This document shows positions 1 through 19,822 of a stretch of DNA of 22,021 nt, one piece after another. Made by a program: the position numbers and the translations under genes. The stretch is from a virus. Within the stretch, counting starts at the first letter, position 1. The number at the start of each line of letters is the position of its first letter. Location of the stretch: positions 1-22,021 of the IMG/VR virus record IMGVR_UViG_3300040807_002991; one strand, written 5' to 3'. The notes beneath the pieces are model-generated. The model saw only the letters and a program-made list of their open reading frames with translations, searched no databases and had not been told where the DNA came from.

Positions 1-165
1 GTTAACATTTATTCTGAAGTTGAATGGTTCTTTCCAAGGGTTAGGACCAATCATTTATTAACCACACCCATAAGCACAAATGAAAATCCCCAGTGTGCTT
101 TTTTTATAAAGGATATTAATCGCAACACTGACACAGTCAGTTTGCATAATTTATTTCATGCTTAA
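1..165 (+). CDS. C-terminal end of an unrecognised protein (cut by window start)
   Basis: An open frame runs in from the left edge without a stop and ends with TAA at 163-165, giving 54 residues ending in SLHNLFHA. Its end overlaps the kdsA start by 8 bases, the same tight packing seen through the rest of this strand, which supports it being a real gene end. I do not recognise the family. Because kdsA follows directly, a sugar-related function is possible, but that rests on position only. Confidence 0.5.
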   Translation, partial: VNIYSEVEWFFPRVRTNHLLTTPISTNENPQCAFFIKDINRNTDTVSLHNLFHA

Positions 166-958
166 TTTTACATTCAACAATTCAGCACCTTTGAAGGTAA
201 TTGCTGGTCCTTGTCAAATAGAATCAATGCAACATACACTAGAAATGGCGGACAGGTTAGCAATCATATGTTCAGAAATAGGAATCAGATGGGTATATAA
301 ATCCTCTTTCGATAAAGCCAATCGTTCATCGATAACGGGAAAAAGAGGCCTTGGCATCGATGAGGGATTGAAGTGCTTACAGAAAGTTAAAGAAGACTAC
401 AAAGTCCCGGTGATAACAGATATTCACCACCACGAACAAGCATCGGTGGTTGCAGAAGTTGTCGACATAATCCAAATACCTGCTTTCTTATGCAGACAAA
501 CAGATTTAATTGTAGCCGCAGGCGAAACTGGAAAAATTGTTAATGTTAAGAAAGGTCAATTTTTATCATACAAGGAAGTTGCTAACATTAAAGACAAATA
601 TCCAAAGAACAAGAACTTTATGATCACCGAAAGGGGAACCACATTCGGCTATAACAATCTAGTTGTCGATATGAGAGGAATTCACTCAATGCGTGATCAT
701 TACCCAGTGATCATGGACGGCACACATTCTGTGCAACAGCCAGGAGGAATGGGATCATCATCCGGAGGCGACAGAACCTATGTCGAACCGCTATGCAGAG
801 CCGCCGTATCCATCGGCATCGCTGGTGTGTTCTTAGAGGTTCACAATGATCCAGATAATGCTCCATCCGATGGACCTAATATGTTAACTCCTGAGTCGTT
901 CAGAAAACTTTTGATAAATCTGAAGGAGTTAGATACCTGTGTTAAACAAAAACTCTAA
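158..958 (+). CDS. kdsA: 3-deoxy-8-phosphooctulonate synthase, metal-dependent type
   Basis: This enzyme condenses phosphoenolpyruvate with arabinose 5-phosphate to make KDO 8-phosphate, the precursor of the inner-core LPS sugar KDO. At 266 aa it is near full family length. Recognisable segments are AGPCQIES (16-23), KSSFDKANRSS (48-58), the PAFLCRQTDL stretch (about 108-117) and SDGPN (237-241). The metal ligands of the metal-dependent class are all present: Cys19, His190, Glu227 and Asp238; the E. coli non-metal class has Asn where Cys19 sits. The ATG at 158 puts the conserved core near the N-terminus as expected. It overlaps the genes on both sides. In a phage it probably alters or supplies host surface sugar, or makes a KDO-like sugar for the virion; which of these is not shown by the sequence. 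Confidence 0.93.
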   Translation: MLNFTFNNSAPLKVIAGPCQIESMQHTLEMADRLAIICSEIGIRWVYKSSFDKANRSSITGKRGLGIDEGLKCLQKVKEDYKVPVITDIHHHEQASVVAEVVDIIQIPAFLCRQTDLIVAAGETGKIVNVKKGQFLSYKEVANIKDKYPKNKNFMITERGTTFGYNNLVVDMRGIHSMRDHYPVIMDGTHSVQQPGGMGSSSGGDRTYVEPLCRAAVSIGIAGVFLEVHNDPDNAPSDGPNMLTPESFRKLLINLKELDTCVKQKL

Positions 959-2252: not shown

Positions 2253-2702
2253 ATGGCTGGAAAATTCTTAGACATCAAAGCAATGATGAATGCAGTGGAT
2301 TCTAGAAACAAAACTTGGTATCAAAATCTAAGTCCAGAAGATCAAAAACTATATTCTCCATATATGGCAATGAAATGGACAGCATCTGTTGAACATCCAG
2401 AACCGAGCATTCAAGAATTTTATATAGAAGAAATTAATGAAAATGTTAATAAACATCATTGGACACTGACAAAATCACATAAAAGATTGCTTTGGAGACT
2501 TACAGCTATGTGCGGTTCTACATTTAAAATGTTCCACAAATGGATATATCCAAAAAAGAAAAAGACTTCGGAAAAATCCAAAATCAAGGACCTGCAAGTG
2601 ATGTTTCCAAATGCAAAAATGCATGATCTTGAAGTTTTAGATAAAACTTTGAGCACAAAAGAACACAAAGAACTTAAACTACAATACGGAATAGAAAAAT
2701 GA
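2253..2702 (+). CDS. Probable clamp-loader small subunit, gp62-like
   Basis: 149 aa, basic. The pattern [13 protein letters not shown] (33-45), a spaced hydrophobic helix, [10 protein letters not shown] and then [11 protein letters not shown], followed by a short helical tail, matches the layout of T4-type gp62: Y-x-P/K-F-M near the N-terminus and a later R-Y-x-K-W-x-K basic motif. In T4, gp62 with four gp44 subunits loads the gp45 sliding clamp. No gp44 gene is in the window, so the partner would lie elsewhere. It has its own leaderless-type promoter and abuts the ferredoxin gene with a 4-base overlap. The call rests on pattern resemblance to a fast-evolving family; an unknown small phage protein is the alternative. 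Confidence 0.55.
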
Positions 2703-3022
2703 CTTATCTAGTAAATGACAAATGTGTGATGTGTAAACATACCACCTGTGTGTCGGTGTGTCCTGTAGACTGTTTTTATGAGGGTGAAAATATGCTAGTG
2801 ATCAATCCCGATGAATGCATTGATTGTGGTGTGTGCGAACCAGAATGTCCTGAAGAGGCGATCATCCCTGACAGCCAAGATACCAACGGCTTTTGGAAGG
2901 AAGTAAACACAAAATACTCAAACATCTGGCCAAACATAGCAGACGAGAAGGAGCCATTGCCCGATTACGAGAAGCACTCCGGCGAAGAAGGTAAATGGGA
3001 GAAATATTTTAAAGAAAAATAA
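2699..3022 (+). CDS. fdxA: 7Fe ferredoxin (3Fe-4S plus 4Fe-4S), FdxA type
   Basis: A small cytoplasmic electron carrier of 107 aa. The cysteine layout is that of Azotobacter ferredoxin I: Cys9, Cys17 and Cys50 would bind the 3Fe-4S cluster, and Cys21, Cys40, Cys43 and Cys46 the 4Fe-4S cluster; Cys12 and Cys25 are extra, as in the family. The stretches [10 protein letters not shown] (20-29) and NPDECIDCG (36-44) are strongly conserved, and the acidic C-terminal tail with WPNI and PLPD is also typical, so it is complete. It begins inside the end of the gp62-like gene (ATGA overlap) and its stop overlaps the next start. Neighbouring radical SAM genes suggest it could reduce their clusters; host reductases would have to feed it. 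That role is inference. Confidence 0.93.
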
Positions 3023-3257: not shown

Positions 3258-3278
3258 TCGGTGGAATATTCACAATGA
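3213..3278 (+). CDS. 21-aa leader ORF copied from the start of the zinc-finger gene
   Basis: ATG at 3213, TGA at 3276-3278. Residues 1-15 match residues 1-15 of the protein at 4415 except Ser5 (Leu) and Asn8 (Lys). It then diverges and stops. Its stop overlaps the radical SAM ATG at 3275 (ATGA), and its start overlaps the previous stop the same way. It could be a relic of a recombination event or a short coupling peptide that carries ribosomes into the radical SAM gene. Translation is inferred only. Confidence 0.45.
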   Translation: MSHPSIFNYQPAKIKSVEYSQ

Positions 3279-4411
3279 AATGCTTATGGCCTGTTAATCA
3301 TATAAGCATAGATGCGTATGGTTATGTTCGACCTTGCTGTGCTTGGGAATTATGGGATGTTAAGACCCCTCCATTTAATATCAACGAGAACACGCTAACT
3401 GATTATTTTAAATCTGACTCTTACACTTCATTAATAGAAAAAATGAAAAATAATCAATTCGGTGAAGGTTGTAGATATTGCATGGTTCAAGAAAGACAAG
3501 ATATCTATAGTATGAAAGATGAAAGTTTCGAAGATTACGAATTTAGCGATACTTTCAAAATATCTAATATGGAAATAAAATTTGGTAACCTTTGTAATCA
3601 AGGATGTGTGATGTGCTCGCCTCGTAATTCGTCTGTGCTAGAACAAGAACAAATCAAATACAAAATCGACACCAAACAAGAAAAGTTTAAATATCATTTA
3701 GAACATCAAGCAAGATCAAAAATAGTAGACAACCCCTGGTACAAAAATGAACAAAGATTGAATGAAGTTGTAGAAATGGCAAGCAAATCTAAATTGGTTA
3801 GATTCACAGGCGGTGAACCAACCGTTAATAATAACCTTTTTACTTTTCTTTCAAAATTGGAAAAATTGAATTCCAAAGTCACTATAAGAATTACTACTAA
3901 TGGACATACTTTTAATCAAAATTTAATTAACATATTAGAAAAGTTCGACAATGTGATACTGCAAGTTAGCATAGATGGGTACAAAGAAGTGCAAGAGTAT
4001 ATTAGATGGCCGAGTGTTTGGTCAAAGATAGAAACCAATTTAGATAAAATGATCAATATGAAAAATTCATATGTGACAGTAATTTCTACCGTGCAAGTTT
4101 TGAACGTGGGAGAAATAGACAATCTAATAGATTGGGCACTAAAAAAAGGAATAGACTATTTTAATGCATACCCTGTTTGGTCTCCTAGTTACTTTAAACC
4201 TTCACTTGCTTCACAACAACGGAAAGATCATTTCATTAACTCGATCGAAAAATATAAAGACCATGATCGTGTGGATTACAGCAGTCTTCTTAGCATAAAA
4301 AAAGCACTATCTAACGAGCAAGATAAGAAATCATTAGAACACTTGTATTTGTATTTAGAAAGATTAGACAAAGTAAGGAAAACCAATTTCGGTAATTTGC
4401 TTAAAATATAA
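3275..4411 (+). CDS. Radical SAM protein with N-terminal twitch-like cysteine domain
   Basis: 378 aa. The [4Fe-4S]/SAM motif CxxxCxxC is at Cys107, Cys111 and Cys114, followed by FTGGEPTVN (SAM-binding GGEP) and a TNGH strand and QVSIDG strand typical of the TIM-barrel core. Upstream of the barrel, residues 1-70 hold ISIDAYGYVRPCC (Cys21, Cys22) and CRYC (Cys66, Cys69), a half-SPASM (twitch) type auxiliary-cluster region, here placed before the barrel rather than after it as in the other two radical SAM genes of the window. Such enzymes generate a 5'-deoxyadenosyl radical; the substrate is unknown. It lies between the two copies of a 50-bp repeat, which suggests later insertion into the operon. 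The 7Fe ferredoxin upstream is a candidate reductant (inference). Confidence 0.88.
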   Translation: MKCLWPVNHISIDAYGYVRPCCAWELWDVKTPPFNINENTLTDYFKSDSYTSLIEKMKNNQFGEGCRYCMVQERQDIYSMKDESFEDYEFSDTFKISNMEIKFGNLCNQGCVMCSPRNSSVLEQEQIKYKIDTKQEKFKYHLEHQARSKIVDNPWYKNEQRLNEVVEMASKSKLVRFTGGEPTVNNNLFTFLSKLEKLNSKVTIRITTNGHTFNQNLINILEKFDNVILQVSIDGYKEVQEYIRWPSVWSKIETNLDKMINMKNSYVTVISTVQVLNVGEIDNLIDWALKKGIDYFNAYPVWSPSYFKPSLASQQRKDHFINSIEKYKDHDRVDYSSLLSIKKALSNEQDKKSLEHLYLYLERLDKVRKTNFGNLLKI

Positions 4412-4459
4412 AAAATGAGTCATCCATTGATTTTTAAATATCAACCTGCTAAAATAAAA
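4410..4459 (+). repeat. 50-bp direct repeat, copy 2
   Basis: Same 50 bases as 3208-3257 with two differences. This copy forms the 5' end of the intact gene at 4415. The two copies bracket the radical SAM gene. Confidence 0.95.
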
Positions 4460-5140
4460 ACTGATATGCCTACTTGCAACTATTGTTCCAAATCTTTTTC
4501 AAAACAAACCACTTTAGATGTGCATATGTGTGAATCTAAAAGAAGATGGCAACAAAAAGACAACAAGGTGCACGTCTTAGCTTTTGAGATATTTAGAAGA
4601 TTCTATGAGATCAATTATTCAAATCAGCGTGAAAAACAATTTGTAGATTTTGTAAATTCTCAATACTACAGAGCGTTCGTAAAGACAGCAGAATTTATCA
4701 CAGCCAACACACCCATCGAAATTGGTGCTTTTATTGATTGGCTCTGCACATCGAAAATACGTATAGACAGTTGGCCCAAACAAACAACCATAGACACATA
4801 CATCAAACACATCGTAAGAAATGAGCCAGTGCCACAAGCATTGAACAGAACGATCACCGAAATGGGCAACTGGGCTACTGAACAAGATGCAAGGTTAGAA
4901 GACTTTTTCAAATATATCAATCTCAATAGAGCCACCCAATTGATTGCAAATGGAAAAATATCCCCATGGGTGATCCTCAACAGTGAGACTGGCAAAGATA
5001 TGATTTCTATTATGCACGATGATCAGATCAAAATTGTGTATGAAATGATAGACCCTGAGTATTGGAAACGAACATTTAAAAAACGTGAAGAAGATCATGA
5101 GTTTGTGAAGCAAACATTGGCAGAGGCAGGTATAGAATGA
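4415..5140 (+). CDS. Zinc-finger protein, unknown (possible helicase-loader-like)
   Basis: 241 aa. Near the N-terminus CNYC (about 21-24) followed by HMC (about 37-39) forms a C2HC-like zinc finger with the SFSKQTTLDVH spacing of a classical finger. The rest is helical. The middle (VDFVNSQYYRAFVKTAEFI) and the C-terminal GKISPWVILNS faintly recall the T4 gp59 helicase loader, whose order is a charged helical domain and then an ISxETFxxL segment; this is weak and gp59 has no zinc finger. The replication and repair neighbours fit a DNA-binding role. It overlaps the glycosylase start by 4 bases. Function is best left as unknown. Confidence 0.85.
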   Translation: MSHPLIFKYQPAKIKTDMPTCNYCSKSFSKQTTLDVHMCESKRRWQQKDNKVHVLAFEIFRRFYEINYSNQREKQFVDFVNSQYYRAFVKTAEFITANTPIEIGAFIDWLCTSKIRIDSWPKQTTIDTYIKHIVRNEPVPQALNRTITEMGNWATEQDARLEDFFKYINLNRATQLIANGKISPWVILNSETGKDMISIMHDDQIKIVYEMIDPEYWKRTFKKREEDHEFVKQTLAEAGIE

Positions 5141-6693: not shown

Positions 6694-6716
6694 AATTTAC
6701 ACAAATCAGTTATAAT
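6688..6716 (+). promoter_or_regulatory. sigma70-type promoter for the mini polymerase, leaderless layout
   Basis: TTGTAA at 6688-6693, a 17-base spacer, and a perfect TATAAT at 6711-6716. Six bases later comes the ATG at 6723, so the predicted +1 is the A of the start codon. There is no room for a Shine-Dalgarno site. Confidence 0.7.
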
Positions 6717-6722
6717 AGTAAT

Positions 6723-7283
6723 ATGCCAGACATAGATATAGACTTCGCTGATAGACAAGGAATATTAGATAAGATACCACACACTAGAGCAAGTATCATC
6801 GATGCCAAAGGTACCAAATCACACAACACAGGAGTTTACTTTACTGACTGTCCAGTTATACCACAAACGAATCAATCTTCAATAGATTACAAAGTATTAG
6901 AGTCATTAGGATATTTTAAATTAGATCTATTGAATGTTAATATCTATTCAATGGTTAAATCAAGACAACATCTACAAGATTTGATCGACACAGAACCTCA
7001 ATGGGAAAAATTACAGGATCGATCATTTGTCGACCAACTGTTCCATTTGAACGGACACTTCGAAGTTGTCTCTAAACTAAAACCTAAAACACTGGAAGAG
7101 ATAGCTTGTTGTCTTGCTATCATTAGACCTGCTAAACGACATCTCTTAAACAAGTCTTGGAACGATATACACAAAGAGGTTTGGACTAAACCCAATGACG
7201 GACAATATTTCTTTAAGAAAGCACACGCAATATCATATGCGATGGCAGTCACAGTGCATATGAACTTACTTTGTGGTGCGTAG
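6723..7283 (+). CDS. Miniature C-family DNA polymerase (DnaE-like) palm/fingers protein
   Basis: 186 aa from the ATG at 6723, chosen because a strong promoter abuts it. It starts with the catalytic motif PDIDIDF at residues 2-8, matching DnaE PDFDVDF (Asp3 and Asp5). His34 in KSHNTGVYF matches the DnaE MHAGG segment, FKLDLL carries the third catalytic Asp (Asp68), and the fingers motifs IRP (134-136) and FKKAHAISYA (164-173) match DnaE IRPG and FNKSHAAAYA. The PHP domain, the glycine-rich GxGS segment, the thumb and the OB/clamp-binding parts are missing. It could be a reduced polymerase, a nucleotide-binding accessory, or an inhibitor of host DNA polymerase III; activity cannot be judged. 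It converges with the minus-strand gene at 7266 with an 18-base overlap. Confidence 0.75.
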   Translation: MPDIDIDFADRQGILDKIPHTRASIIDAKGTKSHNTGVYFTDCPVIPQTNQSSIDYKVLESLGYFKLDLLNVNIYSMVKSRQHLQDLIDTEPQWEKLQDRSFVDQLFHLNGHFEVVSKLKPKTLEEIACCLAIIRPAKRHLLNKSWNDIHKEVWTKPNDGQYFFKKAHAISYAMAVTVHMNLLCGA

Positions 7284-7640
7284 GAGTTGAACTGTCTTTC
7301 TTCTTATTCTTTTTGATTCAGCAAAGTCGCTCAATCTAATCACAGGACCAAAATTAACTTTGATTTCTTTCATCGAATATGTCCTTAGATAAGGTCTGAA
7401 TTTTACGAATTCGGAACCTATGAAGATGTTGATTGGTATTTTCCTGTTAGATTCCCACCACCAGTTTGCACCGTACTCTAGAAACTTTGCTTTTAATTCA
7501 GCGGGTAATAGTTCAAAGACATAGATACTCATTACTTTGCTGTCGCAGTTTTGTATGATACCTATAATTTCTTGCTTTGCTACGGTGATCAAAGACAAGA
7601 ATGGGTGAGAAGTTTGTATTTCGTTGGGATCTACTGACAT
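7266..7640 (-). CDS. Conserved phage protein of unknown function
   Basis: 124 aa from the ATG at 7640; in-frame ATGs at 7649, 7658 and 7691 are alternatives, but the conserved-looking part begins after the last one. The core HPFLSLITVAKQEIIGIIQN, YGANWWWESNRKIPINIFI and GPVIRLSDF, ending in RRKTVQLLR, resembles a protein often seen in T4-like cyanophages without assigned function (from memory; not checked). It is the only minus-strand gene within the left 14 kb and faces the structural gene at 7709 head to head, with about 70 bases between. Confidence 0.75.
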   Translation of the reverse strand: MSVDPNEIQTSHPFLSLITVAKQEIIGIIQNCDSKVMSIYVFELLPAELKAKFLEYGANWWWESNRKIPINIFIGSEFVKFRPYLRTYSMKEIKVNFGPVIRLSDFAESKRIRRKTVQLLRTTK

Positions 7641-7689
7641 TTTATACATAATTACCATGATGTGTTTGTAACAATGATGTTTTTGGTAC

Positions 7690-7697
7690 AATAAATA
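7690..7697 (+). promoter_or_regulatory. T4-like late promoter motif
   Basis: AATAAATA, one base from the T4 late consensus TATAAATA and matching the relaxed NATAAATA form described for marine T4-like phages. It lies 11 bases before the ATG of the structural protein at 7709, the only virion-type gene in the window, which fits late expression. Confidence 0.6.
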
Positions 7698-7708
7698 CTT
7701 TAAATGCC

Positions 7709-8518
7709 ATGCAATACAACATCGGATACATATTACCCAACCTTGTCGATGTATACATACACACAGACGGGACTGTAAGGAGATACGAAAAAGTGTACGA
7801 AAGATCTATTAAGTTGTACAAAGAAGTAGACAACACTTTTACTTTAGTAGTGCGTAATCAAGATCAAAAGGCACAATTTGTAGACGGCACGTCGACTGTG
7901 CTACAGATAAGCGACAGCAACGACAAATTGCAGATTACAAAGGTCGGTGTTGTTGTGGACGACGGTTCGAGTACATCAACGAAAGGACACGTGAAATTTA
8001 CTATAACCGAAAGCGATATGCTTAAACTAAAAACTGGTTTTTATCACGGTGCTATCAAACACACGGACACATCCAGCACCACACAGATTGTATATGCTGA
8101 CACAAGATATGATGCGGCGGTAAGGTTTGAAGTAGTTGATAAGACATTTCCAGCATTGGTTGATAGCACAGAAATTTCATCTTTCTCACTACTCGAAGGC
8201 AAACATATTTCTAGCACTGTAACAGCAAATGCAAATCAAAATTCCAATCAAGCTTTACACACTGTAGCAGTTTATACAAATGACTTTTCCGGTGACTTAC
8301 ACGTCTATGGCACACTGACTCCTAATATGAGTTATGCAACTGACTCACACCAATCTTCATTCTATAAAATTACCACACAAACATATAGCAATGCATCTGG
8401 AGTGAAATATTTTAATTTCACAGGTGTACACACTTCGGTAGCATTTGTATTCGTTCAAGAATCTGGTGATTCTTCTACTGTGCTCGGCGGCATTGACAAA
8501 CTACTTTACAGATCGTAA
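7709..8518 (+). CDS. Virion structural protein, tail/baseplate type
   Basis: 269 aa, rich in Thr, Ser, Val and Asp with alternating beta strands and almost no long helix. The N-terminal half (KLYKEVDNTFTLVVRNQDQKA, then VKFTITESDMLKLKTGFYHGAI) resembles the BppU-like N-terminal beta-sandwich of baseplate proteins, with the typical property-then-limit strand order. The C-terminal half (HTVAVYTNDFSGDLHVYGTL onwards) looks like a second beta-sandwich. A late promoter motif precedes it. A tail-fibre attachment or virion-surface role is likely but the exact position in the particle is unknown. Confidence 0.7.
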   Translation: MQYNIGYILPNLVDVYIHTDGTVRRYEKVYERSIKLYKEVDNTFTLVVRNQDQKAQFVDGTSTVLQISDSNDKLQITKVGVVVDDGSSTSTKGHVKFTITESDMLKLKTGFYHGAIKHTDTSSTTQIVYADTRYDAAVRFEVVDKTFPALVDSTEISSFSLLEGKHISSTVTANANQNSNQALHTVAVYTNDFSGDLHVYGTLTPNMSYATDSHQSSFYKITTQTYSNASGVKYFNFTGVHTSVAFVFVQESGDSSTVLGGIDKLLYRS

Positions 8519-8521
8519 ACT
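8493..8521 (+). promoter_or_regulatory. sigma70-type promoter for the DUF3307 gene, leaderless layout
   Basis: TTGACA at 8493-8498, a 17-base spacer, TAAACT at 8516-8521, and the ATG at 8528 six bases later. The -10 box includes the stop codon of the structural gene. The -10 match is 4 of 6. Confidence 0.5.
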
Positions 8522-8527
8522 GATACT

Positions 8528-8932
8528 ATGTTACTTCATTTGTTTTTTTTATTACTAGTAAAACATTTTATCTGCGATTTTGCACTGCAAGGAAGATTCC
8601 AAGGACCCAAAGACAAATATAAATTAACTTCAGTGAATGGACATCTACACGCTTTGGATCACGCCGTAGGCACTGCATTCATTTTTGCCTGCTTGTCCAT
8701 CGTAATTTATTTTTACAACCATAGTGCTGTGTTTACCAGTGTGATAGTATTTGCAGTCTTAGATTATGTTCTGCACTTTTTTATTGACTGGATAAAAAAT
8801 AATTTTGTCAAAGCCAATGGTTGGGTCAGCAACCAGAGAGAATTTTGGATTTTAACTTCAATTGATCAATGCCTACACGCTGGTTGTTATTTGTTGTATT
8901 GTGTTCTATTTGGTATTTGGTTTATAGGTTGA
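8528..8932 (+). CDS. DUF3307 family membrane protein
   Basis: 134 aa. It has the DUF3307 pattern: a hydrophobic N-terminus with KHFICDFALQ (about 12-21), HLHALDHA (39-46), a central HFFIDWIKN segment and a C-terminal DQCLHAG segment. These His and Asp residues repeat within or next to hydrophobic spans, giving about four membrane segments. The family is common in phages and bacteria; its role is not established. Transcription may start at its own leaderless-type promoter, separate from the late structural gene just upstream. Confidence 0.85.
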   Translation: MLLHLFFLLLVKHFICDFALQGRFQGPKDKYKLTSVNGHLHALDHAVGTAFIFACLSIVIYFYNHSAVFTSVIVFAVLDYVLHFFIDWIKNNFVKANGWVSNQREFWILTSIDQCLHAGCYLLYCVLFGIWFIG

Positions 8933-8957
8933 CATATTAGTTCTTTATTTTTATAAT
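8929..8957 (+). promoter_or_regulatory. Perfect-consensus sigma70 promoter for the primase, leaderless layout
   Basis: TTGACA at 8929-8934, a 17-base spacer, and TATAAT at 8952-8957: 12 of 12 consensus bases. The primase ATG at 8963 is only 5 bases beyond the -10 box, so the transcript should start at the start codon. The -10 box lies within the palindrome at 8941-8963. Confidence 0.8.
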
Positions 8958-8963
8958 AAAGAA
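8941..8963. repeat. Perfect 9-bp inverted repeat covering the -10 box
   Basis: TTCTTTATT at 8941-8949 pairs with AATAAAGAA at 8955-8963, with a 5-base centre. It spans the -10 box of the primase promoter and ends on the A of the start codon. No T-run follows, so it reads better as a protein-binding site than as a terminator. Confidence 0.65.
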
Positions 8964-9925
8964 TGCTTCCGGATTTACAACATACTCTCGAATCACATCT
9001 ACCTCCCAAACGTAAAAAAACTCCTTCAGGATGGATATCATTCAACGCACCTTGTTGTCATTTTAATGGCGAAACACAAGACACCAGAGGCAGAGGAGGC
9101 ATTATGTATCTAGGTGACGGATCAATACAGTATCACTGTTTTAACTGCGGCTACAAAACTAATTTCACTCCAGGAAGATATCTAAGCAACAGATTTAGGA
9201 AGTTGTTAAGATGGTTAAATGTTGACCAATCAACTATTAGTAAATTGTCAATGGCGGCAATGAAACTAGCACAAGAAGTATCACCTAATAAGAATGTTGA
9301 GAAAGTAGATATCACATTTGACAGTTTCAAACTTCCCGATGACGCTACACGCATAAATGATGATCACTCTAATTACGTAAAATATTTGAACACTAGAGGA
9401 ATCGATCACAACGAATATCCTTTTTACGCATCAAAAACATTAGACAATAGAATATTAGTTCCCATATACAAAGACAAAAAATTGATTGGACAAGTTGCCA
9501 GATCAATTGATCCCAATACAAAGCCAAAATATTATGCACAGGTCCAACCAGGTACATTGTTCAACTTGGACAATCAACATTGGTCAAGAAAATTTATAAT
9601 ACTAGTGGAAGGGGTGTTTGATGCCATAGCCATCGATGGTGTGGCTATATTGGGCAGTGAGATTAGCAACAAACAAAAATTACAGATTGAATCGCTCAAT
9701 CGAAAAGTTATCATAATGCCTGATCGTGACAAAGCCGGAAGCAAACTCATTGATCAGGCGTGTGATTGGGGATGGTCAGTATCTATGCCACCGTGGCAAG
9801 AAGGCATTAAAGATATTAATAATGCTGTATTGACATATGGCAAGATGCTGACCATCCAAGCAATCCTCAAATATACACACGACTCGAAAACAAAAATTAA
9901 ATTGAGTGAGAAATTATGGCTATGA
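8963..9925 (+). CDS. DNA primase, T4 gp61 type
   Basis: 320 aa. The zinc-binding region has Cys31, Cys32 and His33 followed by YHCFNCGY (Cys59, Cys62). The Toprim catalytic core has Ile-Leu-VEGVFDA (Glu216) and MPDRDKAG (Asp254, Asp256), which bind the metal for RNA primer synthesis. In T4, gp61 works with the gp41 helicase, which is encoded 2 kb downstream here. The ATG at 8963 is the only Met before the zinc region, and a perfect promoter abuts it. Its end overlaps the nucleotidyltransferase start by 10 bases. Confidence 0.9.
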   Translation: MLPDLQHTLESHLPPKRKKTPSGWISFNAPCCHFNGETQDTRGRGGIMYLGDGSIQYHCFNCGYKTNFTPGRYLSNRFRKLLRWLNVDQSTISKLSMAAMKLAQEVSPNKNVEKVDITFDSFKLPDDATRINDDHSNYVKYLNTRGIDHNEYPFYASKTLDNRILVPIYKDKKLIGQVARSIDPNTKPKYYAQVQPGTLFNLDNQHWSRKFIILVEGVFDAIAIDGVAILGSEISNKQKLQIESLNRKVIIMPDRDKAGSKLIDQACDWGWSVSMPPWQEGIKDINNAVLTYGKMLTIQAILKYTHDSKTKIKLSEKLWL

Positions 9926-10287
9926 CTTGGGATAATAAAAAACCAACAGCACAAATGCTAGGAAGATGGCAACCATTCCACGACGGACACTATAAATTAT
10001 TCAAAGAAATAATAAAAAAGACTGGTCAAGTCTGTATCCAAATTAGAGATGTACAAGGTGTAGACGATAATCCTTTTGATTTTGAAACGGTGAAAAAGAA
10101 CATTGAAGACAGATTAAATCCTGAATTTGAAGGACAATTTAAAATTATGCTTGTGCCAAACATCACAAACATATGTTATGGACGAGGTGTAGGCTACAAG
10201 ATCGAAGAAATTGTTCTTGACGAAGAAACACAAAAGATATCTGCAACCAAGATAAGAGCAAAAATGAGGGAAGATGGTGAACTATAA
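9916..10287 (+). CDS. Nucleotidyltransferase of the HxGH superfamily (cytidylyl/NMN adenylyl type)
   Basis: 123 aa. GRWQPFHDGHYKLF (17-30) is the HxGH nucleotide-binding motif, and ISATKIRAKMREDG near the C-terminus matches the ISSTxIR motif. These enzymes join a nucleotide to a phosphate group, e.g. NMN to NAD or glycerol 3-phosphate to its CDP form. At 123 aa it is shorter than NadD/NadM (about 170 aa or more) and near the size of TagD-like cytidylyltransferases. The motif GRWQPFHDGH is closer to the NadM/NadR pattern (GRFQPxHxGH). The substrate is therefore uncertain: NAD supply or a sugar/polyol precursor are the main options. It overlaps both neighbours. Confidence 0.8.
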   Translation: MAMTWDNKKPTAQMLGRWQPFHDGHYKLFKEIIKKTGQVCIQIRDVQGVDDNPFDFETVKKNIEDRLNPEFEGQFKIMLVPNITNICYGRGVGYKIEEIVLDEETQKISATKIRAKMREDGEL

Positions 10288-11131
10288 TCCTGTAAAATAT
10301 AAAACTCCTTTAAGATATCCTGGAGGTAAATCTCGGGCTATTAAGTTTTTGCACAACTTCCTTCCTGATCGCATTCAAACGTATTGCGAACCTTTTATGG
10401 GAGGTGCGTCCATGGCTCTTTACGTCACCCAAAGATATCCTGATGTTTTGGTTACAGTCAACGATGCATACTATCCATTATTCAATTTCTGGCGTATGCT
10501 ACAGAGTCAAGGCAAGGAAATGGCGATGAGGTTAGAAGAAATTAAAAGAAGTTGTGAGAGCGACAAGGACAAACAGAGAGAAATCTATCAGCAATCGCAA
10601 GTATGGATGGAAGACAAACAATTGGACCATTTCACATCTGCCTGTAGTTTTTATATCGCAAACAAATGTTCGTTTTCAGGTTTGGCTTCTTCTTCTTTTT
10701 CACAACAGGCTTTCGATGGAAACTTCACAATCAACAATATTAGAAAACTTCCTGAGTACCAGGAAATAATCTATATGTGGAACATCACCAATTTTGATTA
10801 CCAAATGTATATGCATCCGGATTATGATCAAGATTTTATATTCCTAGATCCGCCATATGACATCAAATCTTTTTTATATGGCAAAGACGGAGATAAACAC
10901 AAAGGATTTGATCACAACAATTTCAAAGAACATATTGATAGATTAGATAGATGGGGAATAAATTTTATGGTGACTTACAACGCAGATCCAAATTTGATCG
11001 ATGCGTATGCAACCTATAAATGTTTGACCTGGGATCTAAAATATACTTTGCGTTCAACTGGTACATACAGAGAAGATCAAAAACAAAGAAAAGAATTACT
11101 GGTATACAATTATGACAACACAAACAAATAA
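10274..11131 (+). CDS. dam: D12-class DNA adenine N6-methyltransferase
   Basis: 285 aa. SAM-binding motif LRYPGGKS (13-20), EPFMGGASM (39-47) and the catalytic DPPY (192-195) occur in the order of the Dam/DpnM class. It methylates adenine in a short site, in Dam relatives GATC; the actual target is not shown. Near full length for the class. ATG at 10274 with GAGGGA just upstream as a possible ribosome-binding site; it overlaps the genes on both sides. Likely roles are protection from host or rival nucleases, or marking of replicated phage DNA. No partner restriction enzyme is visible. Confidence 0.93.
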   Translation: MVNYNPVKYKTPLRYPGGKSRAIKFLHNFLPDRIQTYCEPFMGGASMALYVTQRYPDVLVTVNDAYYPLFNFWRMLQSQGKEMAMRLEEIKRSCESDKDKQREIYQQSQVWMEDKQLDHFTSACSFYIANKCSFSGLASSSFSQQAFDGNFTINNIRKLPEYQEIIYMWNITNFDYQMYMHPDYDQDFIFLDPPYDIKSFLYGKDGDKHKGFDHNNFKEHIDRLDRWGINFMVTYNADPNLIDAYATYKCLTWDLKYTLRSTGTYREDQKQRKELLVYNYDNTNK

Positions 11132-11549
11132 GGTACTTGCAAAAATAGATGAATGGTCAGAAAATCTTGCTTTGCTGGAGGGACACAGTCGTTTAGAGTA
11201 TTTGATAGATCTGGCCAGACATTCAACAACCATGGATCAAAGCAAACGTATAGAAGAGCGTTTGGTTACAGGTTGTATCAGCAAAATATGGGTAGATGTC
11301 ATTATAGAATCAGATACAGTTAAAGTAGAATATGACAGCGATGCAATGATTACCAAAGGCATCACAAGAATAGTATGCGATTGTTTTAACGACAGCACAG
11401 TAAATGAATGCAAAGGAATCAATCCTGAAGATTTTTTAAAATTAGGAATTGTAGAATTACTAACAGCACAAAGAAGAAATGGATTGGGCAATCTAATTGC
11501 GACAATTATAAGTAGATTCAATCAACTAACCAAAGAGACACAACAATGA
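11112..11549 (+). CDS. sufE: SufE-like sulfur acceptor protein
   Basis: 145 aa. SufE accepts a persulfide from the cysteine desulfurase SufS and passes it to Fe-S cluster assembly. The signature VTGCISKIWV contains the sulfur-carrying Cys55, followed by the conserved SDAMITKGI segment and the C-terminal AQRRNGLGNLIATI helix, as in E. coli SufE. No SufS or scaffold gene is in the window, so it would act with the host machinery. The phage also carries three radical SAM enzymes and a ferredoxin, all needing Fe-S clusters; raising sulfur flow during infection is a reasonable inference. It overlaps dam by 20 bases and speD by 4. Confidence 0.88.
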   Translation: MTTQTNKVLAKIDEWSENLALLEGHSRLEYLIDLARHSTTMDQSKRIEERLVTGCISKIWVDVIIESDTVKVEYDSDAMITKGITRIVCDCFNDSTVNECKGINPEDFLKLGIVELLTAQRRNGLGNLIATIISRFNQLTKETQQ

Positions 11550-11944
11550 AACACAAACATATGATAGTGAGGGCAGAAGCATTCAACGTGCCTAAACACG
11601 AAATCACAATCGTGGATTGGACCAGTAATTTAATACGAGATATAGGAATGAAAATAATGATGGGACCATACGCAAAATATTGTGAAATGCCTGGCAACAG
11701 AGGATTTACTTGTGTGGCCATAATAGAAACATCACACATAGCGTTGCACGTCTGGGATGAACCAAAACCAAATTTAATACAACTGGACGTTTACACTTGC
11801 GGAGAACTACAAAAAGAATTGGTTTTTGATGCACTAGGTAAGTGGGACGCAGAAAAAATAGAGTACAAATATTTGGATAGAGAAAATGATCTCAGAGAAG
11901 TAAATTTTGAAATGACAAGTCCGATGAAAGAAGTTATAATATAA
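11546..11944 (+). CDS. speD: S-adenosylmethionine decarboxylase proenzyme
   Basis: 132 aa, prokaryotic class. The enzyme makes decarboxylated SAM, the aminopropyl donor for spermidine. It cleaves itself to form a pyruvoyl group; the expected cleavage Ser is Ser63 in ETSHIALHVW, with His68 and Cys85 (DVYTCG) as the partner catalytic residues. The usual Glu-Ser-His order is Glu-Thr-Ser-His here, a small deviation next to the cleavage site. speD is a recurring auxiliary gene in T4-like marine phages, probably for polyamines used in DNA packaging or translation. It overlaps sufE and is 2 bases from the helicase start. Confidence 0.9.
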   Translation: MKHKHMIVRAEAFNVPKHEITIVDWTSNLIRDIGMKIMMGPYAKYCEMPGNRGFTCVAIIETSHIALHVWDEPKPNLIQLDVYTCGELQKELVFDALGKWDAEKIEYKYLDRENDLREVNFEMTSPMKEVII

Positions 11945-11946
11945 GC

Positions 11947-13362
11947 GTGGAATATACTAAAGACCTACAGAAATTATTTTTGGAAATGTTCCTTGCGGAT
12001 GCACAGTCATTTGTGAGAGCACAGAACATTTTCCGTTATGCACACTATGATGCACAACTGAGAGAGCCTGCAAAATTTATTTTCGATTATGCTAATGAAT
12101 ACAAGACACTGCCAGATGTTGAGATGGTCAACGCCAAGACTGGTGCAGAACTACAATCAGCGGCGGATATCGATCCTAAACATTTTGACTGGTTCCTCGA
12201 TGAGTACGAGCGATTTGCTAGACACAAAGAGTTAGAGTCGGCTATACTTGCTTCGGCAGATATGTTGGAAAAAGGTGACTATGGCTCTGTGGAAGAGAAG
12301 ATCAAGAAGGCTGTGCAGGTTGGACTCACAAAAGACATGGGTCTGGATTACTTTGAAGATCCCAAAGCAAGATTACAAGCACTCAAAGACAACAACGGAC
12401 AAATACCAACCGGATGGAAGAACTTCGATAAGAAACTGTTTGGTGGTTTCAACAGAGGCGAACTGAACATCTTTGCAGGTGGTTCAGGTGCTGGTAAGAG
12501 TTTGTTCCTACAGAACTTGGCCTGCAACTATGCTGAACAAGGATTGAACTGTGTGTATGTCACACTGGAGTTGAGTGAAAATCTTACAGCAATGAGAATT
12601 GATGCAATGATGACTGAGACTGCTACTAGAGAAATATACAAAGATCTAGACACAGTTGATCTAAAAGTAAAAATGAAAGCAAAGACATCTGGTAAACTTA
12701 GAATCAAATACATTCCGTCTGGAGCAACAGCACTTGATGTGAGAGCATATATTAAGGAATTTGAAATACAGCACAACATCAAATGTGATGTAATTCTAAT
12801 TGACTATTTAGATCTTTTGATGCCACAAAACAAACGAGTGTCTCCATCGGACTTATTTGTGAAAGACAAATATGTGTCAGAAGAACTAAGAAACGTTGCT
12901 GTAGATTTGAATGCATTATTGATAACAGCATCGCAGTTGAACAGAGCATCCGTAGAAGAAATTGAATTTGATCACTCGCACATATCAGGCGGACTATCTA
13001 AGATACAAACAGCAGACAATGTGATTGGTATCTTTACAAGTAGAGCAATGAGAGAACGTGGCAAGTATCAGATACAGTTCATGAAGACTAGATCATCGTC
13101 GGGCGTTGGACACAAGGTTGACTTAGAGTTCAATGTTGATACACTGCGAATACTCGACTTGGCGGAAGATGAAGAATATCAAACATTTAAGAAACAAGCA
13201 CCAAGCATATATTCAAATCTAAAGAGGACCAGCACAGTGACTTCGGAACCAAAAGATGAACATAAGTCGGACGAGCCTCTGAGAGATGACATAGGGAAAG
13301 TAAAAGCAAACATAGAGTCAAGCAAGATCAAACAATTGATCCAAAATATGAACAAGAAATGA
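11947..13362 (+). CDS. Replicative DNA helicase, T4 gp41/DnaB type
   Basis: 471 aa. An N-terminal helical domain (1-130) is followed by the RecA-like motor: Walker A GGSGAGKS (178-185), VTLELSE (205-211), Walker B VILIDY (282-287), TASQLNR, and ISGGLSKIQTADNVIGI with the later KTRSS arginine-finger region. It unwinds DNA ahead of the fork and stimulates the gp61 primase, present upstream. The C-terminus ends with a short tail IKQLIQNMNKK, similar to T4-like phage helicases. The start is GTG at 11947, directly after speD, with no clear ribosome-binding site, so coupling is likely. It overlaps the next gene by 4 bases. Confidence 0.95.
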   Translation: MEYTKDLQKLFLEMFLADAQSFVRAQNIFRYAHYDAQLREPAKFIFDYANEYKTLPDVEMVNAKTGAELQSAADIDPKHFDWFLDEYERFARHKELESAILASADMLEKGDYGSVEEKIKKAVQVGLTKDMGLDYFEDPKARLQALKDNNGQIPTGWKNFDKKLFGGFNRGELNIFAGGSGAGKSLFLQNLACNYAEQGLNCVYVTLELSENLTAMRIDAMMTETATREIYKDLDTVDLKVKMKAKTSGKLRIKYIPSGATALDVRAYIKEFEIQHNIKCDVILIDYLDLLMPQNKRVSPSDLFVKDKYVSEELRNVAVDLNALLITASQLNRASVEEIEFDHSHISGGLSKIQTADNVIGIFTSRAMRERGKYQIQFMKTRSSSGVGHKVDLEFNVDTLRILDLAEDEEYQTFKKQAPSIYSNLKRTSTVTSEPKDEHKSDEPLRDDIGKVKANIESSKIKQLIQNMNKK

Positions 13363-14221: not shown

Positions 14222-14278
14222 ATGTGGCCATACACTGACGAAGAAAACGATATGTTGAGCAAACCAAAAAAAGGTTAA
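14222..14278 (+). CDS. 18-aa micro-ORF
   Basis: ATG at 14222, TAA at 14276-14278, encoding WPYTDEENDMLSKPKKG after the Met. AGGAAAA just upstream is a possible ribosome-binding site. The WPxTxEE start recalls tiny proteins seen in T4-like marine phages (from memory, not checked). Its stop overlaps the stop of the convergent polymerase gene. Confidence 0.4.
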   Translation: MWPYTDEENDMLSKPKKG

Positions 14279-15966
14279 TCGTAGAACTGATTGATCTTCA
14301 TCGATTTGCACTCCAGCACCTCTATGTAATCAGAATTATTTAGGTGCTTGACCTTGCCAATACCCTGTATTACATCATAATCGGAATAAGGAAACGGTTT
14401 GTTTATATTCAAATCAACGTAATAACCATTATCAATACCAAGTGTAACGAAGGTTACATACTTCTTATCGCCCGATTTATACACTCTACCATTGGCAACT
14501 AATCCGGCAAATTCGATACGATCGAGATATAGATGTTTGGTATAGAAACCAGGCAAGAACTTTTTATCCGACCACCAACCATATTTTTTGAACTGATATA
14601 CTGGATCGTCCCAACTATCCGACTTGCTAACAGTCACAGGACTCAATCCAACTCTCTTTGCTTCTGTCTTGTACACCCATCTCCTATAGGATCCATGGCA
14701 GTGTTTGAGTGCGGCTTGCCAAAATCCTTTTTGATTGTGTGCTTTTTGATAAGCCAATGCCCATATCAATCTACCTAGATTTACTGCATGAGCTCTGCAC
14801 AAACCAAATCCACTTAGGCTTTGTAAAGACTTGAACACTTCATCTTTGCGAGGATGATCACCAAGCCTAGTCATAAATTCCATTACACGTTCTTCGTTCT
14901 TTTTGGCGAATGCTCTGCGGTACATATCTGCTTCGTAGAAATCACATCCTATGAGTTTTGATATTTGTACAATGGCGTCATCTTCACATACCACAACATC
15001 CGATATCCTGTCGGAAGTCCAGTCATTAAAAAAGGCCGCCTTACGTCTTCCTTGCAGTGCTACGGGGCGTATCAATGCTGTGGCAAACACACAATCAAGC
15101 ATCGATCGTGGACGTATTGCCCTAAACAATCTCCTCATTGCAGGTGATTCTCCTTGGGTCACTCCCAACACGTCTCCCCGACTCAACAAAGACGAAGTAG
15201 CCTCGTCGATCTCTGGATATTCGTATAACTTTGTCTGTGCGTCGATGTCCAAAAGTTGGCTCAGGCCTCGATTGGCCAGGATGTCCACTTTGAGGTGTTC
15301 TAGATCCTCCACTTCGTTTTTGTCTAACAGTATCTGATTGGTTTGTGATATTAAAGATTTTGGTAATTGCCTTGTAAACATTAAGATGCCTCCACAGTGT
15401 TTTGATATGCATTTTTTCTTGCCTTTCAATTTTGATTCTATTCGTTTTGCCTCAACGGGATCAACTCCCAGCGATTCGTAGGTGAACTTCCTGGGCAGGC
15501 GTCCCCGGTACCCTAACCTTTTAGCTGCCTCACGTCTAGCTGACTTGTCTTGATACAACACATAGTTTGATATCCTTGCCGACTTGCCAGGCCATTTTTT
15601 GAATATGCGATTCATGACTTCTTCCTGACGATAGTGTGGATAGTCAATGTCCACATCAGGTAGATCATCTCGCTTGGGATTGAGGAATCGAGCCACAGGA
15701 ATGTCCCACTGGATGGGGTCAACATCTGTGATGCCCATAAGGTAACACACCAGAGAGGAACCAGCCGACCCTCGAGTCATATGAGGAATGTCTTGAGTAA
15801 GATCAAGAATATCACGGATTTGGAGAAAGTAATCCACAAACCGGAGATCAAGAATGATCTCAAACTCCTCTGCGAGTCTAGATTGGTATTCTGGTGTTAG
15901 GGGACAGGTACGTGTGAAACGTTCAGTGAGTTTGCCTATTAGTTCTATCGCCTTTACGTCTTCCAT
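14275..15966 (-). CDS. PHP-less C-family DNA polymerase catalytic subunit (DnaE-like)
   Basis: 563 aa, about half of a bacterial DnaE. It keeps the core in order: TRGSAGSSLVCYLMGIT (64-80), the glycine-rich nucleotide motif; ARFLNPKRDDLPDVDIDY with catalytic Asp104 and Asp106; KHCGGILMF (189-197); LKVDIL with the third catalytic Asp (Asp228); TALIRPV (296-302); and the fingers motif GLCRAHAVNLGRLIWALAYQKAH (388-410). Residues about 440-563 look like a small beta-rich, OB-type end. The whole N-terminal PHP domain is absent and no clamp-binding peptide was noticed. All three Asp residues are present, so it may be active. Its relation to a T4-type gp43 polymerase, which is not in this window, is open. 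Start at 15966 keeps the full glycine-rich region; a divergent promoter region lies upstream. Confidence 0.85.
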   Translation of the reverse strand: MEDVKAIELIGKLTERFTRTCPLTPEYQSRLAEEFEIILDLRFVDYFLQIRDILDLTQDIPHMTRGSAGSSLVCYLMGITDVDPIQWDIPVARFLNPKRDDLPDVDIDYPHYRQEEVMNRIFKKWPGKSARISNYVLYQDKSARREAAKRLGYRGRLPRKFTYESLGVDPVEAKRIESKLKGKKKCISKHCGGILMFTRQLPKSLISQTNQILLDKNEVEDLEHLKVDILANRGLSQLLDIDAQTKLYEYPEIDEATSSLLSRGDVLGVTQGESPAMRRLFRAIRPRSMLDCVFATALIRPVALQGRRKAAFFNDWTSDRISDVVVCEDDAIVQISKLIGCDFYEADMYRRAFAKKNEERVMEFMTRLGDHPRKDEVFKSLQSLSGFGLCRAHAVNLGRLIWALAYQKAHNQKGFWQAALKHCHGSYRRWVYKTEAKRVGLSPVTVSKSDSWDDPVYQFKKYGWWSDKKFLPGFYTKHLYLDRIEFAGLVANGRVYKSGDKKYVTFVTLGIDNGYYVDLNINKPFPYSDYDVIQGIGKVKHLNNSDYIEVLECKSMKINQFYD

Positions 15967-16061: not shown

Positions 16062-16090
16062 TTGACAGACCAAAGTTATACCTTTAAAAT
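16062..16090 (+). promoter_or_regulatory. sigma70-type promoter for the YqgE/AlgH-like gene
   Basis: TTGACA at 16062-16067, a 17-base spacer, TAAAAT at 16085-16090. The ATG at 16104 is 13 bases further, giving a leader of about 7 nt with a partial AGG at 16094-16096. Confidence 0.65.
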
Positions 16091-16103
16091 AGTAGGTAAA
16101 TAT

Positions 16104-16670
16104 ATGAGTATGATAGATAATTCAATCTTGCTTTCTACAGCACATCTTAATGCTGGAGTTCATGACCTGTGGCGCTACGCAGTAATTAATATGTCGAACT
16201 ACGAAGATACTCACACAGTAGGCTTCATAATGAATCAACAGGTAGTAAACTTTGATGTGAAATCCATACCTCAGGTGTATAGCATCAAGGCACCGATGCC
16301 CACAAGTCCTTGCCCGATATACTGTGGTGGACCTGTGTCTACAGATAAAATTACTATTTGTCACTCATCTGAATATGCCAATAAGCATACTACCCCACTC
16401 AACGATCATTCATCATTAACTTTTAATGAACAGATATTTGTAGACATCAATCAAGGCAAAGGTCCTAAGCATTGGAAAATTATGCTTGGTTATTGTGCTT
16501 GGTTGCCAGGACAATTAGAATCAGAGATTAAACAAAAAAATTCTTGGATGGTTGCTGATATCGATGACTTTATGTGGGGCAAGTACAAACGCAAGGCAAA
16601 AATGTGGACAAGAATTTGTGAGAAAAAAGGTTCGGAACAAGCCAGCCAATTTCTATCAACCCTAGCATAA
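16104..16670 (+). CDS. YqgE/AlgH (UPF0301) family protein
   Basis: 188 aa, full family length. The start at 16104 is preferred over an upstream TTG at 16062 because that lies in the promoter. Family features: DNSILLSTAHLN near the N-terminus (YqgE HFLIAMPAL), RYAVINMSNYEDTHTVGFIMNQ (YqgE VVYICEHN-GAMGIIVN), GGPVSTDKI, and near the C-terminus LGYCAWLPGQLESEIKQKNSW, matching YqgE GYASWEKGQLEQEILDNAW. The biochemical function of this family is not established; bacterial members were linked to regulation of surface alginate and other traits. It is followed 18 bases later by a nucleotide-sugar dehydrogenase, consistent with a surface-glycan context, though this is inference. Confidence 0.85.
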   Translation: MSMIDNSILLSTAHLNAGVHDLWRYAVINMSNYEDTHTVGFIMNQQVVNFDVKSIPQVYSIKAPMPTSPCPIYCGGPVSTDKITICHSSEYANKHTTPLNDHSSLTFNEQIFVDINQGKGPKHWKIMLGYCAWLPGQLESEIKQKNSWMVADIDDFMWGKYKRKAKMWTRICEKKGSEQASQFLSTLA

Positions 16671-19024: not shown

Positions 19025-19812
19025 TATACAACTTTGACCGACAACTCTCTTTCGACAGGTTCGCCCGAATCTGGATCAGCACTCAATGGACCAAATGTTC
19101 TAAGTGGTATATCTGTCCAAGTTTTGCGTATTCCCTTGTAGTCTTCCAGCATTGTTTTTTTATCTAAATCTTCTTCTCTGGGATCAGGAGCTATGTATTC
19201 TAGATCTCTGCTTTCGAACCATCTCAATGATGGGTCAGGATGACCTATGCCTAAAATGACTCTTGGTCTAAAATATTCCTTGTAACCCAACAACTCCATC
19301 CAATCCTTGTGATTATGTTTGTTATAGATGACGTTGGTGTTGAAACCTGTATGGTATCCCATATTGCCGGCCGAGAAAGCAGTGATGCCCATTGCTATAC
19401 CTATGTCTCTGTTAAAATTGATGTCAGATCGATAATCGAACCCGTCACTGACATTATCGGAATCCCTGTCATTGTCAACACCAACTACATCATTCTCGTT
19501 ATCTGTGAAATTTTCTGTCTCGCCAAAGATGAAAAGAACATTGGCTCCGACCTGAGTGTTCCTGCCTGCATCAGTGCCATGACGGTGGCTTCCCCAGCAG
19601 TAGTCATCATATATTGTATTTCTAATTTTTGGATCTGTAACAACGCACAATGCATACCTGGATTCATCCTGTTTGGTTGGTGCATTCTTGCAAAGATACA
19701 CCCAATGATCGATGTGTTCTTGTGGAATTGTTTTTGAAATGTCCCAATTGCGTTGGCACTTTCTAATTTTAACTATGGTTTGTTTTTCATGATCTAGGTT
19801 CATAACAAACAT
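19024..19812 (-). CDS. Nitroreductase-like flavoprotein
   Basis: 262 aa. The N-terminus KIRKCQRNWDISKTIPQEHI followed by CKNAPTKQDESRYALCVVTD matches the FMN-binding start of the nitroreductase fold (R-R-S-x-R-x-F, then APS-x-N-x-Q-P). DIGIAMGITAFSAGNMGYHTGF matches the conserved helix that ends in G-Y/L-G, and RVILGIGHPD matches the late beta strand. Residues about 100-130 form an Asp/Asn-rich loop not usual in the family. The family reduces nitro groups, quinones or flavins, or oxidises azolines in peptide modification. Start: ATG at 19812 (alternative at 19803). A TATAAT on the minus strand (19827-19822) sits 9 bases before the start. Operon position between two radical SAM genes is the best clue to its role. 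Confidence 0.75.
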   Translation of the reverse strand: MFVMNLDHEKQTIVKIRKCQRNWDISKTIPQEHIDHWVYLCKNAPTKQDESRYALCVVTDPKIRNTIYDDYCWGSHRHGTDAGRNTQVGANVLFIFGETENFTDNENDVVGVDNDRDSDNVSDGFDYRSDINFNRDIGIAMGITAFSAGNMGYHTGFNTNVIYNKHNHKDWMELLGYKEYFRPRVILGIGHPDPSLRWFESRDLEYIAPDPREEDLDKKTMLEDYKGIRKTWTDIPLRTFGPLSADPDSGEPVERELSVKVV

Positions 19813-19822
19813 ATTTAATCAA

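What the first reader, a model, noticed from the sequence alone, without database searches (positions are those of the whole stretch)
6723..7283. A 186-aa polymerase palm/fingers protein that begins at its catalytic motif
The protein starts Met-Pro-Asp-Ile-Asp-Ile-Asp, so the C-family catalytic motif is at residues 2-8. It retains the His of the HAGG-like segment, the third catalytic Asp (Asp68) and the fingers motifs, but has no PHP, no glycine-rich segment, no thumb and no clamp-binding region. Either this is a working minimal enzyme, a subunit complementing another protein, or a decoy of host DNA polymerase III.
Basis: partly seen in the sequence, partly recalled or inferred. Interest (0 to 1): 0.75.

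Follow-up and report, generated by a model that had tools for sequence, protein, structure and literature searches.

The report
Half of a split phage polymerase
[quoted passage not shown] the arrangement was noticed by computation in 2021 but I found no report of it being tested.

Summary
The ORF at 6723-7283 is the C-terminal half of the minimal, two-gene DNA polymerase III alpha of group 2.2 jumbo phages, published as a computational finding in 2021 (PMC7824862). It belongs to PHROG 11778. In 101 distinct homologues Asp3, Asp5, Asp7, His34, Lys66, Asp68, Arg135-Pro136, His168 and Tyr172 are invariant. AlphaFold2 (pLDDT 93) matches DnaE/PolC palm and fingers along the whole length, minus the thumb. 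The missing glycine-rich palm segment is a second gene, PHROG 11127, usually tens to hundreds of kb away. 59 of 60 listed phage records with the C-half also hold it; the exception is a 109-kb fragment. The two proteins tile DnaE with a gap of about 5-7 residues. Inferred mechanism: the N-half supplies the glycine-rich segment, the C-half the metal-binding Asp residues and fingers, together a thumb-less, PHP-less C-family polymerase beside a family B replicase. A decoy or decaying gene is not supported.

The parts
6723..7283 (+). C-terminal half of split minimal DNA polymerase III alpha (186 aa, PHROG 11778)
6729..6743 (+). catalytic motif D3-I-D5-I-D7 (equivalent of E. coli D401/D403)
   Evidence: invariant in 101 of 101 sequences; aligned to MPDIDIDF of M. 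tuberculosis DnaE1
6822..6833 (+). His34-x-x-Gly37, remnant of the HAGG segment
   Evidence: H34 and G37 invariant in 101 of 101
6918..6926 (+). Lys66 and Asp68, third catalytic Asp (equivalent of E. coli K553/D555)
   Evidence: invariant in 101 of 101; aligned to the KMD segment of DnaE1
7122..7136 (+). fingers motif I134-R135-P136-x-K138 (DnaE RPG motif)
   Evidence: invariant in 101 of 101
7218..7238 (+). fingers motif K166-x-H168-A-x-x-Y172 (DnaE NKSHAAxY motif)
   Evidence: H168 and Y172 invariant in 101 of 101
7266..7691 (-). convergent conserved gene of unknown function (PHROG 11637), 3' end overlaps the C-half by 18 bp; constant neighbour
   Evidence: a convergent gene of similar size lies at the same place in all the annotated phages read (XacN1 has one extra gene between)
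7709..8518 (+). virion structural protein (PHROG 14467), syntenic neighbour
8963..9925 (+). DNA primase, syntenic neighbour
   Evidence: PHROG 47
11947..13362 (+). DnaB-like replicative helicase, syntenic neighbour
   Evidence: PHROG 19
14275..15966 (-). separate, unsplit, PHP-less DNA polymerase III alpha (563 aa); probably not the partner of the C-half

Best explanation
The protein is the C-terminal half of a DNA polymerase III alpha core that jumbo phages encode as two genes. Shown: it folds as palm plus fingers of DnaE/PolC without the thumb, keeps every catalytic residue, and the genomes that carry it also carry a roughly 170-188 aa N-half with the glycine-rich GxGRGS palm segment that ends where this half begins. 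Inferred: the two proteins bind each other and rebuild the composite palm. The N-half holds the incoming nucleotide's phosphates; Asp3, Asp5 and Asp68 of the C-half bind the two metal ions; Lys66 and the fingers residues Arg135, Lys166, His168 and Tyr172 position nucleotide and template. The result would be a small templated nucleotidyltransferase without thumb, PHP or the rest of the C-terminal region, so of low processivity unless helped by other phage replication proteins. It would work beside the family B replicase, for instance in primer extension after primase, gap filling or lesion bypass; which of these is a guess from its place in the primase-helicase cluster and the N-half's place next to the clamp loader.
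For: Family: PHROG 11778 E=1e-64. Conservation: 101 distinct sequences, catalytic residues 100% invariant, while many other positions vary and identity falls to about 34%. Selection: dN/dS 0.04-0.12. Fold: AlphaFold2 pLDDT 93.1; Foldseek's 16 best PDB hits are all DnaE/PolC, VIA Z 9.7 to 5lew over 184 residues, model 1-186 on chain 419-805, PolC ternary complex 3f2c Z 9.2. Partner: an N-half (PHROG 11127, PF07733) in every complete jumbo genome tested, GxGRGS in all 79 aligned sequences and a constant C-terminus xLDxxEFL(R/K). Complementarity: N-half model 69-185 lies on E. coli 275-393, Mtb 304-413 and Taq 292-455; C-half begins at E. coli 400/401, Mtb 419 and Taq 461. Co-occurrence: 58 of 60 listed records in both lists, plus Vibrio phage 2.275.O by profile, and two 236-kb marine contigs with both halves. 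PolB in all 12 jumbo records tested and in G008, G009, G032. Published reading: PMC7824862.
Against: No N-half lies in this 22-kb fragment, nor in related fragments up to 108 kb that carry the 563-aa gene, so the pair is not shown for this particular phage. Binding and activity are untested. Without a thumb or clamp-binding region the reconstituted enzyme may be a poor polymerase, so the chemistry could be something other than DNA synthesis. The N-half model alone has low confidence (pLDDT 65.5), including the glycine-rich segment.
Confidence: 0.8

Rival explanations
1. The C-half's partner in this lineage is the 563-aa C-family protein encoded about 7 kb away, either by borrowing its glycine-rich palm segment or as a regulatory subunit.
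For: The two genes lie 5-9 kb apart in about 30 distinct marine contigs. No N-half was found in the sampled fragments of 563-positive phages, up to 108 kb.
Against: The 563-aa protein carries its own complete and invariant motifs, so it needs no second active site. 563-positive rows are scattered on the C-half tree, at least 7 changes forced by well-supported branches, and some are sisters of 563-negative contigs that do have the N-half: L080 with L093, and L051 beside L085. The fragments lacking the N-half also lack its usual GroES-like neighbour, so that part of the genome was not sampled.
Confidence: 0.08
2. The split pair binds metal and nucleotide but is not a DNA polymerase: it is a nucleotidyltransferase that modifies a protein, RNA end or small molecule.
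For: Pol III belongs to the Pol-beta-like nucleotidyltransferase superfamily, which includes many non-polymerases (established knowledge). Thumb, clamp-binding region and the regions after the fingers are absent. Every genome tested already has a PolB.
Against: The fingers motifs that read template and incoming dNTP in DnaE (RPG, NKSHAAxY) are invariant, and both genes sit among replication genes.
Confidence: 0.12
3. It is a decoy or inhibitor of host DNA polymerase III.
For: It resembles the host enzyme's catalytic core and lacks accessory domains.
Against: Metal-binding Asp residues buried in the active site are invariant in 101 sequences; the family spans phages of hosts from Vibrio and Klebsiella to Agrobacterium; the split partner is kept with it.
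Confidence: 0.03
4. It is a decaying fragment of a full-length DnaE.
For: It lacks most of the domains of DnaE.
Against: dN/dS 0.04-0.12, near-constant length and an identical start across at least 546 loci, conserved gene order, high-confidence fold.
Confidence: 0.01

Closest known systems
Split minimal DNA polymerase III alpha of group 2.2 jumbo phages (Iyer, Anantharaman, Krishnan, Burroughs and Aravind 2021, PMC7824862); PHROG 11778 (C-half) and PHROG 11127 (N-half)
   Same: Same family, length, missing domains and genomic setting; isolated relatives include Sinorhizobium phage Phosso (57% identity), Agrobacterium phage Atu_ph07, Pseudomonas phages PA5oct and Paride, Klebsiella phage RaK2, Escherichia phage 121Q, Pectobacterium phage CBB and Xanthomonas phage XacN1.
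   Different: The window's lineage is marine and also carries an unsplit 563-aa C-family polymerase near the C-half; the paper states that jumbo phages with the split version hold no other Pol III domains.
Cellular DnaE (Escherichia coli, Thermus aquaticus, Mycobacterium tuberculosis) and PolC
   Same: Palm and fingers fold, three catalytic Asp residues, Lys before the third Asp, RPG and NKSHAAxY motifs.
   Different: Single chain of 900-1400 residues with PHP, thumb, helix-hairpin-helix, clamp-binding and OB domains, all missing here; here the palm is divided between two genes just before the catalytic strand.
Split DnaE of cyanobacteria (split intein)
   Same: A DnaE encoded by two separate genes (recalled from general knowledge, not tested).
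   Different: There the halves carry intein sequences and are spliced into one chain. Here neither half has residues beyond the polymerase junction, so trans-splicing is not indicated.

Membership tests
Split minimal Pol III alpha of jumbo phages (C-half, PHROG 11778) | Sequence match to the C-half family | tested here: met
   PHROG 11778, E=9.7e-65, residues 3-185 on profile 8-193 of 197
Split minimal Pol III alpha of jumbo phages (C-half, PHROG 11778) | Begins at or just before the DxDxD motif, no glycine-rich segment, PHP or thumb | tested here: met
Split minimal Pol III alpha of jumbo phages (C-half, PHROG 11778) | N-half encoded elsewhere in the same genome | tested here: inconclusive
   Not in the 22-kb window. 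Present in 59 of 60 listed records with the C-half (one is a 109-kb fragment) and in 236-kb marine contigs G008 and G009
Split minimal Pol III alpha of jumbo phages (C-half, PHROG 11778) | Family B polymerase in the same genome | tested here: inconclusive
   None in the window. Found in all 12 jumbo records tested and in G008, G009 and G032; none in the shorter 563-positive fragments
Split minimal Pol III alpha of jumbo phages (C-half, PHROG 11778) | Gene order C-half, convergent small gene, structural gene, primase, helicase | tested here: met
C-family DNA polymerase (DnaE/PolC) | Palm and fingers fold | tested here: met
   VIA Z 9.7, rmsd 3.9, 184 residues to 5lew; the 15 best-ranked entries are all DnaE or PolC
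C-family DNA polymerase (DnaE/PolC) | Three catalytic Asp residues | tested here: met
   D3, D5, D68 (and D7) invariant in 101 sequences
C-family DNA polymerase (DnaE/PolC) | Glycine-rich GS segment in the same chain | tested here: not met
   Absent here; supplied by a separate gene in relatives. So it is not filed as a complete C-family polymerase, only as half of one
C-family DNA polymerase (DnaE/PolC) | PHP domain and thumb | tested here: not met
   No Pfam match other than fingers; 186 residues span about 375 residues of DnaE
C-family DNA polymerase (DnaE/PolC) | Binding to the sliding clamp | not tested
   No motif search or binding prediction was run
C-family DNA polymerase (DnaE/PolC) | Template-directed DNA synthesis | not testable with these tools
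   Needs biochemistry

The most novel reading that the evidence does not exclude
Some marine jumbo phages run two distinct C-family enzymes, a two-gene thumb-less one and an unsplit 563-aa PHP-less one, in or next to one primase-helicase cluster, probably with a family B polymerase as well; the split enzyme is an obligate two-subunit active site with a dedicated role such as primer hand-off or lesion bypass.
Probability: 0.3. Interest if true: 0.75.

Novelty: new member of a known kind. Interest (0 to 1): 0.5.

Why it matters
A polymerase active site divided between two independently encoded proteins, with the cut just before the strand that carries the metal-binding residues, would be the smallest C-family polymerase known to me and a test of which parts of DNA polymerase III are needed for catalysis. 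The family is widespread (at least 546 encoding loci in one viral collection, and phages of E. coli, Klebsiella, Salmonella, Pseudomonas and plant bacteria), yet many of its genes are still labelled hypothetical and I found no experiment on it in the papers searched. The exact junction and invariant residues given here define the constructs and point mutants for that experiment.

Tried and rejected
Trans-splicing by a split intein: rejected, because the N-half ends at EFL(R/K) plus 0-2 residues and the C-half starts at MPDIDIDF, with no extra sequence. Frameshift or sequencing break: rejected, because the halves lie at separate loci up to hundreds of kb apart. The TTG start at 6684 (199 aa): unlikely, because several relatives have a stop directly before MPDIDIDF. 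Use of the GroES-like neighbour of the N-half to judge whether 563-positive fragments lack the N-half: it matched none of them, so their missing N-half means nothing. Search for N-half and C-half, or N-half and 563-aa gene, on shorter N-half contigs: none, but the contigs are too short for the usual spacing. A scan with the Phosso N-half as a single sequence gave nothing. dN/dS of the window against its nearest relatives: synonymous sites saturated in all but one pair, so mainly pairs among its relatives were used. Literature searches for any experiment on the split enzyme found only the 2021 computational paper. Not attempted: a two-chain complex prediction, which the structure tool does not offer.

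Full report
Observation. The ORF 6723-7283 (+) encodes 186 residues beginning MPDIDIDF. It matches PHROG 11778 ('DNA polymerase') at E=1e-64 and, weakly, the Pfam fingers domain of DNA polymerase III alpha. Homologues of nearly the same length occur in jumbo phages of Sinorhizobium, Agrobacterium, Pseudomonas, Klebsiella, Escherichia, Salmonella, Xanthomonas, Erwinia, Vibrio and others at 57-34% identity, and in at least 546 IMG/VR loci. The window itself is a 22,021-base IMG/VR virus record.

It is under strong constraint. In 101 distinct sequences Asp3, Asp5, Asp7, His34, Gly37, Pro44, Lys66, Asp68, Leu70, Trp94, Pro121, Ile134, Arg135, Pro136, Lys138, His168 and Tyr172 are invariant. Most marine members start exactly at MPDIDIDF, several with a stop codon directly before it. 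dN/dS among relatives is 0.04-0.12. It is a gene, not a remnant.

Fold. AlphaFold2 with 83 sequences gives pLDDT 93.1. Foldseek's 16 best PDB matches are all DnaE or PolC. VIA-align places model residues 1-186 on M. tuberculosis DnaE1 419-805 (Z 9.7, rmsd 3.9, 184 aligned), T. aquaticus 461-835, E. coli from 400/401 to 778, and PolC 971-1293. So 186 residues cover about 375 residues of DnaE; what is missing is mainly the thumb. A profile search against PDB sequences gives only DnaE chains and aligns the four motifs in order to DnaE1.

The missing piece. Searching whole jumbo-phage records for the Pol III alpha palm domain found, in each, a separate gene of about 170-188 residues with the glycine-rich segment. 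It is PHROG 11127. In 79 aligned sequences it always has GxGRGS and ends xLDxxEF(L/F) plus 0-3 residues. Its profile matches E. coli DnaE 216-393. Its AlphaFold2 model is poor overall (pLDDT 65.5), but its confident part, residues 69-185, lies on E. coli 275-393, Mtb 304-413 and Taq 292-455. Together with the C-half ranges this leaves a gap of about 5-7 residues in each reference: the loop before the catalytic strand. The two proteins therefore tile palm and fingers without overlap.

Co-occurrence. Of 60 listed phage records with the C-half, 58 are also in the N-half list. Vibrio phage 2.275.O has the N-half by profile search; the last, PP728206, is a 109-kb fragment of an otherwise about 350-kb phage type. 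Two 236-kb marine contigs, G008 and G009, have both halves. The spacing between the genes ranges from about 15 kb (XacN1) to more than 200 kb (Phosso). A family B polymerase is present in all 12 jumbo records tested and in G008, G009 and G032.

Neighbourhood. The C-half is always followed by a convergent small gene, a structural gene, primase and a DnaB-type helicase, with UvsW/UvsX-type genes upstream in the annotated phages; the window keeps this order from 6723 to 13362. XacN1 is a partial exception. The N-half is followed by a small gene (PHROG 14844), a GroES-like gene and, in several phages, a clamp loader.

The 563-aa protein. The gene at 14275-15966 (-) is a complete but PHP-less Pol III alpha core with its own invariant motifs. 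It lies within 5-9 kb of the C-half in about 30 distinct marine contigs. It is missing from all the isolated split-polymerase phages tested and from G008 and G009, and stands without either half in the 484-kb record LR756508. On the C-half tree its presence changes at least seven times, and 563-positive rows sit next to G008 and G009, which have the N-half. I conclude that it is an independent, mobile addition and not the partner; this rests on bracketing, because no complete 563-positive genome was available. Note that '563-negative' was called for some contigs from about 10 kb of downstream sequence only.

Prior knowledge. [quoted passage not shown] The marine jumbo-phage survey PMC9123017 found the PF07733 domain in 51.9% of its cluster A. 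The finding is therefore a new member of a known kind.

Mechanism and confidence. That the protein is the C-half of this split enzyme is close to certain (about 0.95). That the halves bind and form a nucleotidyltransferase site is inferred from complementarity, co-occurrence and invariance (about 0.85). That the chemistry is templated DNA synthesis is likely (about 0.75). Its role beside PolB is open.

Noticed in passing
window 14275-15966 (-): Unsplit PHP-less DNA polymerase III alpha core of 563 aa, common in marine viral contigs (81 encoding stretches, 60-96% identity), repeatedly gained or lost near the split C-half. Worth its own study.
   Followed up: partly
window 7266-7691 (-): Convergent gene of PHROG 11637, unknown function, overlapping the C-half's 3' end; a convergent gene of similar size is in the same place in distant jumbo phages.
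   Followed up: partly
L189 2071-2451 and 2454-2858; same order in L008-L011, L184, L185, L190: The N-half is followed by an uncharacterised protein with a conserved VNARGD segment (PHROG 14844) and a GroES-like protein, a second conserved cluster.
   Followed up: partly
L003 9992-10567 (Agrobacterium phage Atu_ph07, NC_042013.1 gp074): The annotated start (10073) cuts off the catalytic DIDID motif; the frame is open from 9992.
   Followed up: no
window 6712-6717: TATAAT lies just upstream of the C-half's ATG (6723) with no clear ribosome-binding site between; in AT-rich sequence this may be chance.
   Followed up: no
window 158-958, 2699-3022, 3275-4411, 11112-11944, 16062-16670, 17840-21344: Many metabolic-looking genes in a short stretch: KdsA-like, ferredoxin, radical-SAM-type proteins, SufE-like, SpeD-like; named by eye from the translations except the AlgH-like one at 16062 (Pfam).
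   Followed up: no
window 4415-5140: Protein with a C2H2-type zinc-finger-like N-terminus, member of phage family PHROG 11058 of unknown function.
   Followed up: no
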